From: Cokeromyces recurvatus
Taxonomy: Eukaryota; Mucoromycota; Mucoromycetes; Mucorales; Mucoraceae
Assembly (NCBI RefSeq): GCF_025118155.1
Contig: NW_026251390.1
Location: 744,001 to 808,000, forward strand
Reading direction: 5' to 3'
Length of the DNA: 64,000 nt
Shown: positions 10,235 to 52,917 of the stretch, piece after piece
Position numbering within the stretch: the first letter of the stretch is position 1
Layout of the letters: every line of letters begins with the position of its first letter
The notes under the pieces: generated by a model
What the model saw: the letters and a program-made list of their open reading frames with translations, nothing else
Told to the model about the DNA's origin: nothing
Databases searched by the model: none
Position numbers and translations under genes: made by a program

Positions 10235-10623
10235 TTTATAATAAAGAAATATAATAAAAGAAAAGAAAAAAAAAAAAGGAAAGAAAGAAATCTTTATAAT
10301 TCCCTATTATATAAAAAAAAGGAGAAAAAAAAAAAAGGAGGGAAAGTCGGAAGAAGTTCAATTTTATTGTTCAAAAATGATATTTTTTTTTTCTATTTTT
10401 GTATCTAATTAGTTATATTTTATATTTGTATCAAGATCAGAAGCATGACAACTAATACTATGGTAATAAACTTTGAAGTGTAGTATACATTCTGCTGTTG
10501 TTTGTTGCTCAATGATTGGCTAAGAATAATTAATTCTTTATTTTTAAACTTCCACACAAAAATCATTTTCGTGTTTTTTATTTATTTATTTATCTATTTT
10601 TTTTTTTATACAAGTAGTCTAAA
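10235..10623. promoter_or_regulatory. Divergent promoter region
   Basis: This stretch separates the start of the Q-rich minus-strand gene from OST2 on the plus strand. It is rich in A and T runs; poly(T) ends shortly before the OST2 ATG. No TATA box or operator can be named. Confidence 0.5.
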
Positions 10624-11102
10624 ATGGAGCAACTCAATACAGCAATTAAAAAACTTATTACAGGATACAAGAATACAACACCACCTTCACTAAAGTTAAT
10701 TGACATTTACCTTGTTTACATAATGTTAACTGGAATTCTTCAATTTATATACATGGCAATAGTTGGCACTTTTCCTTATAATGCTTTTCTTGGTGGTTTT
10801 ATTTCGACTGTTGGCAGTTTTGTTCTGGCCGGTAAAAGAACATCTATTTTCTATACTAATAACAAGAATACGATTATTTATTTATTTACTTTTGTTGTTT
10901 AGCTAATTTACGTATTCAAACTAATCCAGAAAACAAAGAATCATTCAAAAGTACATCACCTGAAAGGTAAACTGGACATTTTATAAAAGATGAATGCCTG
11001 TGAAGTCAACTTTTCTAAAAATATAACTTTATTAGAGCTTTTGCTGATTTTGTTGTATGTTCACTTCTTCTTCATGGATTTTGTATCAATTTCTTAGGTT
11101 AA
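10624..11102 (+). CDS. OST2: OST2/DAD1, oligosaccharyltransferase subunit
   Basis: Exons 10624-10831, 10903-10966 and 11036-11102 give 112 residues, almost exactly the length of human DAD1. Diagnostic segments are LKLIDIYLVYIMLTGILQF, the loop GTFPYNAFLGGFISTVGSF, the cytosolic ANLRIQTNPENKESF and SPERAFADFV, and a C-terminal FLG. Three hydrophobic membrane segments are visible. The protein is a small ER-membrane subunit of the complex that transfers the lipid-linked glycan to nascent proteins (N-glycosylation). Both introns are short GT-AG, and the SPER|AFADF junction is restored exactly by splicing. Confidence 0.97.
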
Positions 11103-11533
11103 ACGATGATTTATTTAGAAATAATAATAAAAAAAAAAGAGATGCAAATATTTGAATACATGTGTGTGTCTTTACGTATATCTTGGAAATGTTCAATTGT
11201 GATATGAATAAAATGAGTACTTGCTAATCATTATACGAAAGCTAGAAATATTAATTTGGAGGAAATGTGCAAACGAACAGAAAAAAAAGGAAGGTGCTTT
11301 TTATCGTTTGCAGTATTTTTACTTTAAATTCAGACGATGTTAGTTTTTTTTTTCTCAACGAATGAAAATTAACTTTCAGATGTTTAGCTTACCTTTTTTA
11401 GACAAACGAAGAAGAAGTGAGATTAGTTTTTAAACAAAGTAAACATAATTTTCAGACGCTTACCTGTAAAGCATTCAAACAACAAAAGTTGAGTGAATGT
11501 GGTCATCTAAATACACTAGGTAAGCTGTGTTTA
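11103..11533. other. Intergenic, 3' flank of the Fanzor relic
   Basis: Between OST2 and the broken Fanzor-type gene. It contains three degenerate TTCAGA(C/T)G-like words at about 11328, 11372 and 11449. No ORF is supported. If the element carried a guide-like RNA it would lie here, 3' of the ORF, but nothing in the sequence demonstrates it. Confidence 0.45.
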
Positions 11534-12989
11534 TTACAGCGACGACTGCGGCGGTGTGGTGGTGGTGGTGGTGGTGGTGGTGGTGGTGGTGCGTTGAAAA
11601 GGTGTTGGTCTTTCTCGTCCCTGCCAAATGCTGATAGAGATTGTCAGCATGTTTCGGGAAGCATTAATGTTTCTTTGCCAAAGAGTATGACAAGAAGAAC
11701 AGGCAATCACACTCAATCTAGTAACAGGCGAGGCTGGAATCAAGGTTAGAGTTTGGCATTTACTGCATACTTTGGATGTGCGGAACTCGTCAATTGTGAT
11801 TGTGATAAGTTGTCCAGCTGCTTCATGCCTTCTCAGCGCGCGCCATAAAATACCTGTCGCCTCACATCTGAGCGTCCTGATCTTATTGGTGTCCCTATTG
11901 AACATTCCACTTTCAAATACTATCAGAGGAACCTTTGTCTTGTCTTCTTTGTATTTGATGGGCCTCCATTTGTTCAGTTTTTCTCTAAAGAAAAAAAAAA
12001 TTGAATTAATAACTGTTTGAATATATTCAAGTAGAAAATATTTATACTTGATAGCATCGTTCTTATTTGGTCTCTTCTTTCTTCTTTTGTTTCTTCTTTT
12101 TCTACCTCTTCTTGTTTCTCCTACTTTGATTATATTTGGTGTCACCGTTTATAAGCATATTGACCATAGTTTCTTGCGCTTTTTGCCTCCCTTGATAAAG
12201 TTGGAGGCGTTTTTTTTTTTGCAGTACTGGAATTGTAAAAGTTGAATAAAGTATTTATGTTATCAAACAGATATTGAACATAGTCTAAAGAACGCTCCGG
12301 GTTTGATGTCTTGGTTGTGGGAACTCTTGATTCAATATCCTCTATTCCGTTTTGACTTTTCAAAAATTGTTGGTGGGCAGAAAAAACAGTCAAACCAGTA
12401 AGATAATAATACTCTTTAGTACTGCAGCGGATTATTGGGTGCCTAGACTCGTTTAAACAACTCACGGCAGTGAATACAGACTTTTGCCTAGGGTCAACAA
12501 AAATTGGATGATAATCCTTTACTACTTCTGGTAAAGTAAAGTCGTGAAGAGTCAACTCAAAGCGTTACAAAGAAGGACCGTAACTGGCTTGACATCTTTT
12601 GTAAAACAAAAAAAAATCAACAACAAAACCATCAATCCGTATCAAGTTTCCAAAAAAGGATCTGGTTGTTTCCATCTGGTGTTAATTCAGCAATACTACA
12701 AATATAAAAGTAAGAAATACATAAGCCTGATTTGATACAATCTCTATCTATACTCACCCTCTGTAGCACAGTTTCCCAAAATTGAAAACATCATAAAACA
12801 ATCTTAGCTGTCTTCAGGTGTTATATTGTATGGGCATAAGGGAGATCTTGCTGTAGAATGATTATCACCACAGCATTTCTTACAATGAAGATTGATCATA
12901 TTATCATTTGTGGTCTTTTGTCGTTTTGCTGTTTGTTTAGCTTGCTTCAAACTTTTGCTTTGCCTTTCTTTTCTTGCTTGAAGTTCCAA
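11534..12989 (-). pseudogene. Broken Fanzor (eukaryotic TnpB/OrfB-like) RNA-guided nuclease gene
   Basis: Read on the minus strand, a basic N-terminus and zinc-knuckle-like LHCKKCCGDNHSTARSPLC (12890-12830) precede a RuvC-like core. The first RuvC segment is DYHPIFVDP; then LYQGRQKAQETMVNM, a Lys/Arg-rich stretch, VPLIVFESGMF, GILWRALRRHEAAGQL, and a C-terminal zinc ribbon (TSKVCSKC...CSSCHTLWQRNINASRNM). TSxxCSxC...CxxC...RDxNAAxN is the hallmark of OrfB/TnpB and Fanzor. Here the usual RD is RN, so the third catalytic Asp is Asn. Damage: an in-frame TAA upstream of LTLHDF, a frameshift in the A-run near 12215, another frameshift in the basic stretch, and apparent loss of the helical region seen in the 50.5-kb copy. 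A clean intron (AA|GTATAA ... TTTAG|A) restores DAIKEKLNKW, so the ancestor was a spliced eukaryotic gene. It ends in a poly-Thr run. Confidence 0.72.
11556..11590 (-). repeat. (GGT/ACC)n microsatellite
   Basis: About 11-12 GGT units encode poly-threonine at the C-terminus of the broken Fanzor-type gene on the minus strand. Confidence 0.9.
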
Positions 12990-13457
12990 CTACACATGAT
13001 CATTATTATACATAAATAGTATATTGTACGAAGATTAAACTTTAATTTTAGGCCTCATTTGATAAGGGATATGTATAGAATAGCATTGAGCTTAATAATA
13101 ACTAAGAATCAAAGAGGCAAGAAAAGGCCAGTCATTTAATCATAATATTACTTTTTAGCAATCAAAGACTTATTACCTTCTTATGCTTTAAACTTTATAT
13201 ATTTGATAATCAATAAAGGAAATACTAATTATTATTATTATTTTTTTTTTTTTTTTTTTTGAAGAAAAAGAAAAGAACATCATCAAACTTGTAAAAATAG
13301 CACCAGTTATTCATTCAATTACTTTTGATTGGTTAAAGTATTTCATATTGCATAGTCCCTTTGATTGTATAAAACCTGTTTGCTTGACCAGCACTAATAA
13401 ATATATAAAAAGAAAGCAACTGATGTAATTTTAATTTAGACAATGTATGAATCATAT
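12990..13457. other. Intergenic region, 5' flank of the Fanzor relic
   Basis: AT-rich, with a ~20-nt poly(T) near 13241-13260. I see no gene and no terminal inverted repeat that would mark the element boundary. Confidence 0.5.
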
Positions 13458-14609: not shown

Positions 14610-16386
14610 TTATAAATCAATTAATGGAGCTTCTTCCACAGGCTTCTTTTGCTCGGTATTAGATTGAGTTGGTGAAGCGACTTGATAATGAGGAGGAGCA
14701 GAATAATAATATTGATTTATGTCTTGATTATTCACAGTAGGAGGAGGATAGTATTTATTTGTGTCATGCTCAGATGATGTCATATAATTATAATTTTGTT
14801 GTGGCTGATGATATAATGTTTGTGGCTGATAATGTTGCTCAGGTATATTATAGCTGGATCCTTGACTAATACCAGCTATTCTTTCTTCCAATAAACGATC
14901 ATATGATCTAACCACCCTATTTAATTTCTCATGAAGTTCAATAAAGGAATTACGCTTATGAATTGTTTCATTTAAACTTTGCACAAGCTTGGGCTGTAAA
15001 GTACCGATTTGAGTATATAATTGATTAATTTGAGGATCGTTTGAAATATCTTCTCCTGTAGCATACACTCTATCCATCAAAGTAGAGAATAACAGAATAT
15101 TTTCCATTTCAATGGGTGATAAATCATTTTGATGTATCTGTTGCACTACAGCTGAATCTTGAGAAACAACTTCCTTCTGTTGTTGCTTAGATATCTCAAG
15201 GTCACGTAAAGAAGCGGCAATAGCAGCTGCCAGGTCAGGATCGTCTTCAATGGATGATTCGTGTCTGTTATTCGTTTGATTATTAGATACATAACCTGCA
15301 CTGTAATTATTTTTTTGTTGCTCAGCTTCTTTTAAAGAAAGTTCAATCGCTTTCTTCATATCTTCATCTAAATCATCCTCATTACTTGTAGTTTGCTTTG
15401 TTGTTTCTGGAGCTGATGATATTGGCTTGTTGAGAGTCGCCTTATCCAACTTCAATTTAATATAACAACCATCACAAACACGAACTGATTCGTTGATACC
15501 TAATTTGGGTAAAGGCATTGTTTTTGATGAACATTGTTGACAAAAAGTACCACCACAATTACGGCAGTGATGCTTTCTATTTGTAAGTGTAAATGGTGTA
15601 CGACATCTATCGCATACGTCAGAATCTGACCATTCAGGGGCCTATCATTGAGTCATATTAGTCATACTCTACACATATCCAATATAAATAGACTTACACT
15701 AGAAGTTTCCAATAAAATTCCATCTATATTTTCATTTACTGGAGGAAATTGCATGCCTTCAGCCTTTAAAAGAGCATAGGTATCATACATGTAGCTTAAA
15801 CTAGGTTTATTTTTCGAAGCTAATCCCCAGATTTGAATTACATTCAAAATTTTGTTTTTAACATCGAGGTTACATCCAGTCTATTAAAATAAAATAAAGG
15901 AGTTAAAACTAATAATATACATACATTCATTCGTTCATATAAACTTACAGGTGCTTTTAAAATAGATACAAGCTCATCCATGAATTCTCTTGATGCAACT
16001 TCTCTAACAAATAATTCGCCTCCATTCTTTACACAAGTATCCACAAGCTAATTCCAATTGTTATTTTATAAATTCAGTATTTTTTTTTCACCCCCAAGGT
16101 TTTGGCAATACTTACAGAAATAGTTGCAAGTTGAACATTAGGATTTTTATGTCCTAATCTTTTTTTAATCGAGCGCATAGCATCTTTGGCATTTACTTTT
16201 TTACTACGAATTTGGTCACTTATTTCTAAGTTTAATACAATATCTTCCTGTCCTCCTGGTAATAATTCAGAAGTTGCTTTTTCTATAGTATTTGTCTGAA
16301 TAACTAACACTCTAATTTCTCTCTTTTTTAATATAATGAAACTTACCAACTATTTCATCAAAAGGATTTTGACCCCACCAAGACAT
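14610..16386 (-). CDS. VPS27: VPS27/HRS, ESCRT-0 subunit
   Basis: Exons 16347-16386, 16116-16282, 15949-16047, 15698-15880 and 14610-15641 give 506 residues. Domain order: VHS ([36 protein letters not shown]), FYVE finger with the phosphoinositide-binding RKHHCR and CQQC, then two ubiquitin-interacting motifs ([14 protein letters not shown] and [16 protein letters not shown]). A helical core and a Tyr/Pro/Gln-rich tail follow, ending in PLIDL, a clathrin-box-like terminus as in yeast Vps27. The protein binds PI3P and ubiquitinated cargo on endosomes and recruits ESCRT-I. At 506 residues it is somewhat shorter than yeast Vps27 (about 620). All introns restore the VHS frame. Confidence 0.95.
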
Positions 16387-49917: not shown

Positions 49918-50535
49918 TGTTATAGAAGAAGCTCTGGATATAAGCATAAGTATTATTATAATAGATGAATTACATAATACAGGATAAACTATAAGTCTGA
50001 ATATGAAATAAAACTCTGTATATAACATCTTGTAAATAATATAAAACTTATTGACATCCAATTGTTTAGATGTATCAACTATAAAACATAGTATTATTTC
50101 TAAATATTTATTTTTATAACCTTGACAAAGGATTCAAGTCGCCTTTGATCCAATAAAATAAAACATAAAAGATATCAGGAACATATACTCAGATCAAACA
50201 ATAAAGTTTTTATTTAAAGCCTCAATCAGATCATTATAACACCCAGTAGATAATCCATAGATCATTCTCTTGAATCAACAAGATGTATATCCGAATACTA
50301 ATACTGCTTCATGACTCATGTTCTTTGACGGTTATTTTTATTTCTTTGATTCAGGATTCATTAATATAAATACAAGCATTTGTGAAGATTCAAAATGATC
50401 TTTAACTTCTTTCTCTTAATTTTTCTTTTAACCTTCTTTATTTTTATTGAATAAAAACAGTCTCAAACTATACTTCCTTTTGTTCCCTTTCTCTCTTTTT
50501 ATTTTATCTTTTATCTTTATTTACATTCCATCACA
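49918..50535 (+). repeat. ~618-bp LTR-like dispersed repeat, copy C
   Basis: Third copy of the TGTTATAG ... CCATCACA repeat, in the same orientation as A. It is more diverged from A and B in the first 480 bases, but close to A in the last 120 (CAGTCTCAAACTATACTTCC and beyond). Its right edge coincides with the break of the Fanzor relic and its left edge with the break of a different transposon fragment. There is no target-site duplication (GGGCG versus GTTTG). Confidence 0.85.
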
Positions 50536-51235
50536 GTTTGGTGTTAATTTTAACTTTAGGATATTTTTCTTTATATTGGTCCCACACACGAAGGGGATCT
50601 CCAGGTATTTTTTTTTCTTGATTTGTTCTACGTTGATTGTTCACGAGTTGACATATGCTATACCAAAAGTTCTTGTTAAAAAATGCCAGAAGGTGGAGAC
50701 CTGGATATATCTTGCAAAACATAATAGTTTATAAAAATCTTCGCTCTAATCACAATCTGTCTAACTATGGCACATGCATTGATTATCACTTGTTTAATTT
50801 GTTGAAAACCATTTCTGATACATTGATCAAATGGAACTTTTCTAGTGAAGACCTTGTAATTATTACCAAGATTATTACGAATCACATGAGCTTTGGGTAG
50901 TATATTGAAAGGGTGTAAGGAAGTTCTTGCAGATGAATATCTATCTCTATTGTATTTATTACAGTGAAGAGTTTCAGGAGCGTTATTATCAACCTTTTGC
51001 TTTTTTGCTATTTTTTGTCTGCTTTTGTCACATCACTCTGTTTTCTTTTGTTCTTGCTTGAGCCAACCAATATCCGAAAACACAATTTTAGAGAATAAGT
51101 TACAACAATTACACCTAAAGTTGGTTCAATAATATCCGAATCTGTTGTAGAAGGAACATATAGTTTGCATTTATAATAACTCCTAGTATAATGTCCAAGC
51201 TCAATACAATCAACGCAAATGACTCCTGTTATCAT
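50536..51235 (-). pseudogene. Second Fanzor-type relic, N-terminal half
   Basis: On the minus strand: a zinc-knuckle-like CVDCIELGHYTRSYYKC at the start, a basic stretch, then ETLHCNKYNRDRYSSARTSL and PFNILP, which aligns with LHCKKCCGDNHSTARSPLC and PYNITP of the 12-kb copy although its later cysteines are lost. It continues VFTRKVPFDQCIRNGF and IRAKIFINYYVLQD, a one-base shift near 50690, then FWYSICQLVNNQR and ends at repeat C. The RuvC core and zinc ribbon are absent. Stops, the frameshift and truncation mark it as dead. Family assignment relies on similarity to the first copy and to mucoralean Fanzor N-termini. Confidence 0.55.
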
Positions 51236-52917
51236 ATTAATATAAATGATGAGTGCCTTGCAGCTCTTTTTTTTTTCAGTATAAAAACATCAATACCAGT
51301 AGCCTCTTGACTCTTTCGTATTTCAAAAACGTCTTGCTTTTTTTTTAAAAAAAATAGCTGTTTTATGCATAGTCATATTTGAATGTAAAGAAAGAGAAAA
51401 AGAAGTGTACTTGTCAATAATTTTTTTAACAATTTAAGCAAGTAAAGTCACATATGTTGTACGATTAATATTAAAACTAAGTGGCAAAGCCATATTATAC
51501 AATTAATTAGATTTCTGTGATGATCCATACTAATCTAAAAGCTTTGAGAGGAACCTCATTATGTGTATTACATTTAGACACAGAAACTCCAGATTGCACC
51601 ATTTCCTAGTCTAGAAATCAATATATATTAACTATGTATGACCCTTCACAAGTCTATTATTTGATAGCTGGATTGCAGATAATACTCTGGAAGACTGTAA
51701 AGATTAAGTCAAGCAGACTAATAGTTACGTGGGCAAAAGAAGTTTTGATCTGTCTGAAATAGAAGTTGATTATGTCCTAAAAAAATAGAAAAATTCTGAA
51801 AACCATTTTTTTTTTTACAAGTCTAAGCATAAAACTTTCTGTTTAAATTTTGTATTTACTTTATCCAAAAAAGGTAAGCAAATTGTCTGAATTTAAATTT
51901 TGACTCGTCCAAAAAAAAAAAAACTAACATCGTCTGAATTTGAAGTAGAAATACTATATATGGTATAATTTAAATCATCTCCCTCAGCATAAGCACCGAA
52001 ATTCTCAGGATGTTTCTGCTTGGTTCTATCGCTGGCCAGTTATGTGTACCATTCTACAGGAAATAGATTACTTAATGCACGATAAACTACCCCCTCCACT
52101 TCTTGATCCAGGCAGAAAATGACTCAACTGGTTGTCTCTTTAAATTTGTTAGCAACATTCCCCCTTTCTTTCTCACCTTCCCTTCTTCCTTTCCTTTACC
52201 TGTTTACCCCTTGTCCCATAAGAGGGTTTTTAGATACTTTTTTTTTACATAATTTGAACTGACCTGGGCAATCCAATATAATAAAGATATTATGTGCCCA
52301 TAGGTCGCTTTTTAAATTTTAATTTATAAAAATAATAAAAGAAAAAAAATTGTTTAATCATATGTGGTATAATTTGTACACATGATTGAAGTCGACTCAT
52401 ATTGGAATATATTATTATTTAATAAAAAAAAAACATATAGAATGTATCGTATCCTACGCGTAACTATTTATAATCATTTATTCCCTTCGAAAAAAGGGGG
52501 AGGCGGGATATAGATTTATATATGACACTATTATTACTATTACTTCCACTTCTGCTGTAAAATTACTTAAAAGAAAAGTGTGTGTCTTTGTCTATAAATA
52601 GTGTTTTGTCAAGGTACACGTCTACCTTTTATGCCCACCTCAGCCCCACTTACAAATAAACTCATTTCTACTATTTCAATCATAGTATTAGAAGAATTAA
52701 AGCTTCTTCACTTGTCTTTAATAAATAAAATAAAATAAAATAAAGAAAGGGAAAAAAAGAAGGGGAAAAAAAAAGAAAGGAAAAAAAGAAAAAAAAAAGG
52801 TTTAATATAGTTTAATTTTAATTGGTCTTACTTTTTTTTTTTTTCTTTTTAACAAGTAAACAAAAGATCGCTCACTTTAAATTTACTTTTTCTTCTCCTT
52901 TTTTTTTCATATTAAAA
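51236..52917. other. Gene-free AT-rich region
   Basis: About 1.7 kb. The last 200 bases before the kinase are purine-rich (A/G) then T-rich, a likely promoter. The rest holds short frames without motifs and may include remains of the element at 50.5-51.2 kb. Nothing further can be named. Confidence 0.5.

What the first reader, a model, noticed from the sequence alone, without database searches (positions are those of the whole stretch)
11534..12989. Fossil Fanzor (eukaryotic TnpB-like) gene with intron and Asp-to-Asn change at the third RuvC site
The minus strand carries a recognisable OrfB/TnpB zinc ribbon (TSKVCSKC ... CSSC ... QRNINASRNM) and RuvC-like segments. The conserved RD of RDxNAAxN is RN here, an in-frame TAA and at least two frameshifts are present, and an intron splices cleanly. 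The element was therefore once a spliced nuclear gene that is now dead. Such fossils help trace programmable nucleases in Mucorales and suggest intact relatives elsewhere in this genome.
Basis: partly seen in the sequence, partly recalled or inferred. Interest (0 to 1): 0.75.

Follow-up and report, generated by a model that had tools for sequence, protein, structure and literature searches.

The report
Decayed copy of a Fanzor transposon
The window holds a dead, cut-down copy of a fungal transposon that once carried a Fanzor (a eukaryotic relative of CRISPR nucleases); the copy was already missing half of its nuclease gene when it spread, but it still carries a well-preserved guide-RNA-like segment.

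Summary
Window 11311-13023 (-) is a decayed Fanzor1-type gene: TnpB zinc ribbon (PF07282, E 9.9e-9), RuvC segments, two GT-AG introns, broken frames, RN for RD. The genome is very probably Cokeromyces recurvatus (Mucorales), with at least 70 PF07282 matches. (1) The copy did not die in place: it belongs to a subfamily that lost the same 946 bp (N-terminal half) once; 8 copies are contiguous across that junction, 2 keep the piece, and both of those are broken too. The 'in-frame TAA' follows from the deletion. (2) Asp-to-Asn is no death mark: GtFz1 has Asn naturally and SpuFz1 D606N cuts better (PMC11423790). (3) Substitutions fit neutral decay. (4) At the stop codon begins a two-hairpin element that covaries across 16 copies of other subfamilies: an omega-RNA-like scaffold, as in PpFz1. 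It stops 103-221 bp inside the transposon end, at CAG|GTAAG. Boldest, unproven reading: splicing there joins scaffold to flanking DNA as guide. A second Fanzor relic (5' half) lies at 50516-51962. Ordinary as a fossil; the RNA architecture is worth testing.

The parts
11311..13023 (-). remnant of a TA-target TIR transposon carrying a Fanzor1 gene; left end cut off at 13023, right tip at 11311
   Evidence: blastn to L027, L028, L029, L035, L047, about 90-95% identity, starting at 13023 in all five; alignment; tip
12816..12989 (-). 5' coding remnant with a zinc-knuckle-like motif (HCKKCCGDNHSTARSPLCPY)
   Evidence: sister copies; aligns to Mucor flavus P0001 residues 33-83, E 0.001
12815..12816 (-). 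junction of the 946-bp internal deletion (about residues 84-369 of P0001 missing)
   Evidence: same junction in L029, L035, L047; 8 copies genome-wide contiguous across it, 2 split
12696..12757 (-). intron 1, GT-AG, 62 nt
   Evidence: present in the sister copies, its end deleted in L028
12148..12695 (-). exon with RuvC-I (VDPR, Asp codon 12495-12493) and the ESR[IV]P motif, frame interrupted
   Evidence: tblastn of P0001 residues 370-559, E 5.8e-39; SpuFz1 8gkh aligns to this exon of L027; codon checked
11985..12047 (-). intron 2, GT-AG, 63 nt
   Evidence: P0007 gene model reads AIK then EKLNKW here
11534..11984 (-). last exon: IDEF (11794-11780, presumed Fanzor-type RuvC-II Glu), C4 ribbon 11648-11803, Asn at the third RuvC site 11671-11669, stop codon 11536-11534
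   Evidence: PF07282 E 9.9e-9
11456..11546 (-). omega-RNA-like scaffold: stem SL1, extended SL2, ending CAG|GTAAG (donor-like GT at 11463-11462); its 5' edge overlaps the last codons
   Evidence: model R1, built without this DNA family, hits 11505-11540 at E 0.003; covariation in other subfamilies; fold of this stretch z -2.2
11311..11408 (-). right terminal inverted repeat (about 98 bp)
   Evidence: inverted match to left ends of L027, L028, L029
50516..51962 (-). second Fanzor relic: 5' half with left TIR (51924-51962), other subfamily, 3' half missing
   Evidence: tblastn P0001 E 1.2e-26, P0006 E 3.1e-25; TIR pattern

Best explanation
A truncated, neutrally decaying copy of a non-autonomous transposon. 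An ancestral TA-target TIR element (Tc1/mariner-like) carried a spliced Fanzor1 gene plus its omega-RNA scaffold. One copy lost 946 bp, the N-terminal half (WED/REC by the known Fanzor domain order, recalled, not mapped here), with a frame change. This deletion form was multiplied in trans by a transposase encoded elsewhere (inferred), giving at least eight copies. The window copy later lost its left end and collected further lesions, Asp-to-Asn among them. It makes no nuclease. It could at most make an RNA from its preserved scaffold (inferred).
For: Fanzor1 identity. Fold: the model of the relative P0001 has seven PDB matches at E 1.3e-13 or better, all Fanzor1; the next is at 0.56. Shared junction. 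The missing piece occurs in only 2 copies. In the fetched copies the homology ends at the TIR tips and flanks are unrelated, with TA on both sides of L027 and L028. Neutral decay: 18 of 76 private substitutions synonymous in four deletion copies, 28.7% expected without constraint, p 0.38.
Against: No transposase with this TIR was found: 8 of at least 184 DDE_3 loci were looked at. The left end is missing, so the copy's own target duplication cannot be checked; its right flank reads CA, not TA. Only four of the eight deletion copies were read; of these only L029 keeps both TIRs. L047 is nearer to full-length L027 (94-95%) than to the other deletion copies (91-92%), so gene conversion or uneven decay is not excluded.
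Confidence: 0.88

Rival explanations
1. A once-working Fanzor gene died in place by point mutation.
For: Introns, RuvC segments, stop and frameshifts are present.
Against: The main lesion is shared with seven other loci and very probably predates this insertion.
Confidence: 0.06
2. The deletion form is kept as a guide-RNA-only 'ghost' element: its scaffold is used by Fanzor proteins made by other copies.
For: The window copy has 0 private substitutions in the 128-nt segment behind the stop codon, against 19 in 1027 coding sites. SL1-like cores occur at 52 places (5 with the reversed pattern), 23 of them not behind a PF07282 match. Ghost loci are known in Spizellomyces (PMC10432273, section 7).
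Against: The lack of change is not significant (about 2.4 expected), one private change lies at the scaffold's 5' edge, and the four deletion copies together have 7 in 512, close to their coding rate of 76 in about 4,100. L035 has a change inside SL1. No expression data.
Confidence: 0.2
3. An unrelated zinc-ribbon transposase.
For: None found.
Against: Sequence and fold matches to Fanzor1.
Confidence: 0.01
4. The retained C-terminal RuvC-TNB part is selected as a truncated regulator.
For: An independent deletion form (L057) of another subfamily also lost the N-terminal half.
Against: The frame shifts at the junction and substitutions fit neutral decay.
Confidence: 0.03

Closest known systems
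Fanzor1 proteins of Mucorales (Mucor flavus P0001, Mucor plumbeus P0003, Parasitella parasitica P0006) and the SpuFz1, PpFz1, GtFz1 structures
   Same: TNB ribbon, RuvC motifs, Fanzor1 fold of the relative P0001, 3' two-hairpin RNA like the 75-nt PpFz1 omega RNA (PMC11423790, section 5)
   Different: this copy lacks about 295 N-terminal residues, is frame-broken and has Asn at the third site (as GtFz1 has)
Fanzor1-bearing Mariner elements without transposase (PUl-4 type; Bao and Jurka 2013, PMC3627910, passages seen)
   Same: TA target, TIRs, Fanzor as only gene; the paper lists Fanzor1 families in Rhizopus, Phycomyces and Mucor
   Different: internal-deletion subfamily outnumbering full-length copies 8 to 2; TIR of about 98 bp lying between scaffold and end
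Partial Fanzor loci and ghost elements of Spizellomyces punctatus (PMC10432273, section 7)
   Same: many partial copies beside full ones; TIR-bounded forms without a Fanzor
   Different: there the omega RNA runs through the inverted repeat into flanking DNA; here the scaffold stops well inside the element
IStrons, bacterial TnpB elements with a group I intron (recalled; no paper found)
   Same: splicing and guide-RNA making meet at a transposon end
   Different: self-splicing group I intron there; a presumed spliceosomal donor here, in the novel reading only

Membership tests
Fanzor1 | C4 ribbon (pfam07282) preceded by [TS][TS]xx | tested here: met
   PF07282 E 9.9e-9; TSKVCSKC
Fanzor1 | RuvC-I Asp 125-275 residues before [TS][TS] (motif of PMC3627910) | tested here: met
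   219 residues in the spliced reading of the sister L027; in this copy the Asp codon is kept but frames are broken between
Fanzor1 | RD (third RuvC Asp) | tested here: not met
   RN; the other five sister copies read RD; Asn is natural in GtFz1
Fanzor1 | closer to Fanzor1 than to TnpB or Fanzor2 | tested here: met
   sister L027: Mucor Fanzor-like proteins E 3.4e-214, SpuFz1 best PDB hit E 4.6e-4 before the TnpB-like LaTranC 0.0076; relative P0001 fold hits Fanzor1 only at E<=0.001. The window fragment alone hits TnpB-like chains weakly and no Fanzor chain. No tree built
Fanzor1 | N-terminal WED/REC half | tested here: not met
   deleted in this copy; so a Fanzor1 pseudogene, not a working Fanzor
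Fanzor1 | structured omega RNA at the 3' end | tested here: met
   structure by covariation and model; expression not tested
Fanzor1 | RNA-guided DNA cleavage | not testable with these tools
   needs biochemistry
Tc1/mariner element | TIRs and TA target duplication | tested here: met
   in L027 and L028; L029 has TA left, CA right; in the window copy only the right end remains, flank CA
Tc1/mariner element | DDE transposase in or matched to the element | tested here: inconclusive
   none recognised in the element; at least 184 DDE_3 matches in the genome, 8 looked at, none with this TIR

The most novel reading that the evidence does not exclude
In these fungal Fanzors the guide is joined to the omega-RNA by the spliceosome. 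The ~50-nt scaffold ends in a conserved 5' splice site (CAG|GTAAG), the terminal inverted repeat acts as an intron with a CTAAC branch site, and the transposon tip plus TA target (CTG-TA-G, or ATACAG in another family) supplies the 3' splice site, so splicing removes the transposon end and fuses scaffold to flanking DNA.
Probability: 0.18. Interest if true: 0.88.

Novelty: new member of a known kind. Interest (0 to 1): 0.42.

Why it matters
As a fossil it is ordinary: partial Fanzors are known. It matters for three reasons. It shows in one genome how a Fanzor transposon turns into a multiplying non-autonomous form that keeps the guide-RNA end. It corrects the idea that an Asn at the third RuvC site means a dead Fanzor. 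And it poses a concrete question: how does a scaffold that stops 103-221 bp inside the element obtain a guide from flanking DNA? If splicing does it, that would be a new way to make guide RNAs.

Tried and rejected
Searches were meant to search the TIR and the N-terminal half, but I took the coordinates in the wrong orientation and queried flanks; for the same reason queried an exon, not the junction. They are not used for TIR or N-terminal claims; searches are the corrected searches. In alignment A1 L017 and L057 were given on the wrong strand; A1 is not used.

YAG depletion as evidence for splicing: 7 YAG against 19.8 in base shuffles over eight representatives, but the reversed triplet GAY is equally rare (8 in all), so the test says nothing for splicing. 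In this copy's own family the GGUAAG pairs with CUUACC in the predicted fold, so there the donor-like letters may be structural. Of six single-sequence folds, those of L031, L012 and L010 do not give both hairpins as minimum, and five of six have z-scores weaker than -1.5 or positive; the hairpins rest on covariation. A comparison of left and right flanks for a TAG preference was planned but not made: too few left ends were read.

Rfam has no match in the window. No tRNA. Papers: searches for Fanzor with splicing, TnpB with guide RNA, splicing, intron and transposon, Fanzor with terminal inverted repeat and fungi and IStron with guide RNA (none) showed me titles and abstract starts in which I saw no spliced guide; this is no proof of absence. 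Of PMC11423790 I read sections 4, 5, 7, 11, the outline and passages; of PMC10432273 section 7 and passages; of PMC3627910 and PMC10711439 passages only.

Full report
What is there. The minus strand of 11311-13023 holds a broken Fanzor gene inside the remnant of a transposon. The last frame (11534-12148) matches the TnpB/Cas12f zinc ribbon PF07282 at E 9.9e-9 and, far below cut-off, NCBIfam's TnpB models. Upstream lie RuvC-I (VDPR), the ESRVP motif and, further up, a zinc-knuckle-like motif. Two GT-AG introns are recognisable, 12757-12696 and 12047-11985; across the second a gene model of the same fungus, P0007, joins the codons.

Which organism. The window lies in a 28-Mb genome of 64 contigs. 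A protein relative, P0007 (79% identity over 31% of the query), is named Cokeromyces recurvatus and comes from a contig of 2,298,495 bases, exactly the length of contig C1 of this genome. I therefore take the genome as Cokeromyces recurvatus (Mucorales); this is inference from that length and name.

Fanzor identity. The reading of the full-length sister copy L027 finds 17 proteins, best a Mucor flavus one (E 3.4e-214, 48% over 98%), with Mucor plumbeus, Parasitella and others, and SpuFz1 as best PDB hit (E 4.6e-4). The window fragment alone hits only TnpB-like and designed chains weakly in the PDB (best E 2.8e-4 to a designed protein). A structure model of the Mucor flavus relative P0001 (mean pLDDT 66, weak in the RuvC part) matches seven PDB chains at E 1.3e-13 or better, all Fanzor1 from Spizellomyces, Parasitella and Guillardia; the next hit has E 0.56. 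The fold test is on the relative, not on the fossil.

Copies in the genome. PF07282 has 70 matches, 60 over the cut-off; the tool calls such counts lower bounds. I read the 42 best-scoring of the 70: 41 in 40 fetched regions and the window copy. Asp at the third RuvC site is Asn in 2 of 42, this copy and L024; a further element, L057, also has Asn. Asn is not a sign of death: GtFz1 has it naturally and SpuFz1 D606N is more active than wild type, though the same change does not help TnpB or Cas12 (PMC11423790, section 7).

A copy born broken. Five fetched regions are close DNA relatives: L027, L028, L029, L035, L047, about 90-95% identical. L027 and L028 are full length (about 3.4 kb, TIRs of about 98 bp, TA on both sides). 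L029, L035, L047 and the window copy lack the same 946 bp; the junction letters CACCTGAAGACAG are the same in the four. Genome-wide, eight copies match contiguously across that junction and two are split; the missing piece itself occurs only in L027 and L028. Other Fanzor subfamilies here have parts or all of the N-terminal region, so it was deleted, not gained. Both full-length copies are broken too: an in-frame stop in L027, a deletion over an intron end in L028. In four deletion copies 76 private coding substitutions comprise 18 synonymous, 55 non-synonymous and 3 stops; 28.7% synonymous is expected without constraint (p 0.38). The window copy alone has 3 synonymous of 19.

The RNA end. The 42 ribbons and L057 make 43 copies; 23 belong to the clade of this family, and in all 23 I located, at or just behind the stop codon, a core of two hairpins and TTTTTACAGGTAAG-like letters: 18 by pattern, L011, L012, L020, L029 and L041 by hand-set anchors. 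On 16 sequences of the other subfamilies (L032 left out as identical to L031) the nine pairs are formed in 92.4% of cells, with 22 cells changed on both sides (6.9 in shuffles, 0 of 500 as high) and a covariation score of 0.503 (0.196 in shuffles, at most 0.125 when slid); the number of pairs with such changes, 6, is reached by 40 of 500 shuffles and the number of pair types by 96; all four pairs of SL2 have changes on both sides. SL1 alone on 21 sequences including this family: 90.5% paired, score 0.243 against 0.161 at best when slid, while the counts of changed pairs and pair types do not exceed the shuffles. A covariance model built from the 16 finds all six copies of the window's family at the right place (E 2e-5 to 4e-3; window 11505-11540, E 0.003); off-site hits begin at E 0.006 (50 sources). 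Size and two-hairpin form fit PpFz1, whose omega RNA has 75 nt, two stem loops and a four-pair SL2 (PMC11423790, section 5). An SL1 pattern occurs at 52 places in the genome, against 5 for the reversed pattern; 29 of 52 lie within 450 bp behind a PF07282 match.

The puzzle and the bold reading. In published cases the omega RNA runs through the transposon end into flanking DNA, which becomes the guide (PMC10432273, section 7; PMC10711439, passages). Here the scaffold ends 103-221 bp inside the right tip in the 23 copies measured (13 of this clade, 6 of B1, 4 of B2; 153 in the window copy). The letters at its end read as a 5' splice site: GT follows in 38 of 41 located copies (21 of 23 in this clade, 17 of 18 in the other families, where B3 has one base between CAG and GT; L021 and L039 have lost the place), and GTA in each of 11 groups that I set apart by eye. 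The place was partly found by those letters, so the count is not independent. In family B1 what looks like a plain intron with a TACTAAC branch site lies directly before the scaffold. In this clade CTAAC or CTAAT sits 33 bases before the tip in 11 of 13 copies, but it is part of the inverted repeat and may be kept for the transposase; the tip plus target reads TAG or CAG in 8 of 13 copies; in family B2 the tip itself is a YAG and, but for one at the donor in L009, the only one (4 of 4); in B1 the last YAG is 12 bases inside the tip (6 of 6 measured), which fits less well. Against it: YAG depletion is not specific, the donor letters pair in the fold of this copy's family, this copy has no YAG between donor and 60 bases past the tip, and there is no transcript. 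I give it 0.18.

Surroundings. The element stands between genes whose sequences look like DAD1/Ost2 (10618-10902) and a FYVE-domain protein (14610-15641); these names are recalled, not tested. A second Fanzor relic, the 5' half with its left TIR, is at 50516-51962. L057 is an independent N-terminal deletion form of another subfamily, with both TIRs in about 1.6 kb. The transposase is unknown: at least 184 DDE_3 matches exist, eight were inspected and none bears this TIR.

Verdict. Observation confirmed; interpretation partly supported.

Noticed in passing
window 50516-51962 (-): Second Fanzor relic: N-terminal half with zinc-knuckle-like motifs and the left TIR, no TNB, so a ribbon search misses it.
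   Followed up: partly
L057 (1-1751), near-duplicate L058: 1.6-kb TIR element of another Fanzor subfamily that independently lost the N-terminal half; also Asn at the third RuvC site. L057 and L058 are 99.7% identical including flanks (segmental duplication or assembly).
   Followed up: partly
L014, L016, L018, L019, L022, L025, L026, L036, L037, L040, about 60-190 bases after the ribbon: Family B1 seems to have an intron with a TACTAAC-like branch site between the ORF end and the presumed RNA scaffold, which then reads as a separate exon.
   Followed up: partly
genome places listed, e.g. C3:405727, C27:313838, C56:568218: SL1-like cores without a PF07282 match nearby (23 of 52, about 5 expected by the reversed pattern): possible guide-RNA-only ghost elements.
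   Followed up: no
L015: Two Fanzor ribbons on opposite strands, tail to tail, within one stretch bounded by TIRs.
   Followed up: no
L049-L054: Tc1/mariner-like elements with 146-148-bp TIRs (98.6% identical arms) and open DDE_3 frames of 452-461 aa: look recently active.
   Followed up: no
P0006 and L027 N-termini: Two CCHC-like knuckles at the N-terminus of Mucorales Fanzors; Pfam zf-CCHC only E 0.47 in P0006.
   Followed up: partly
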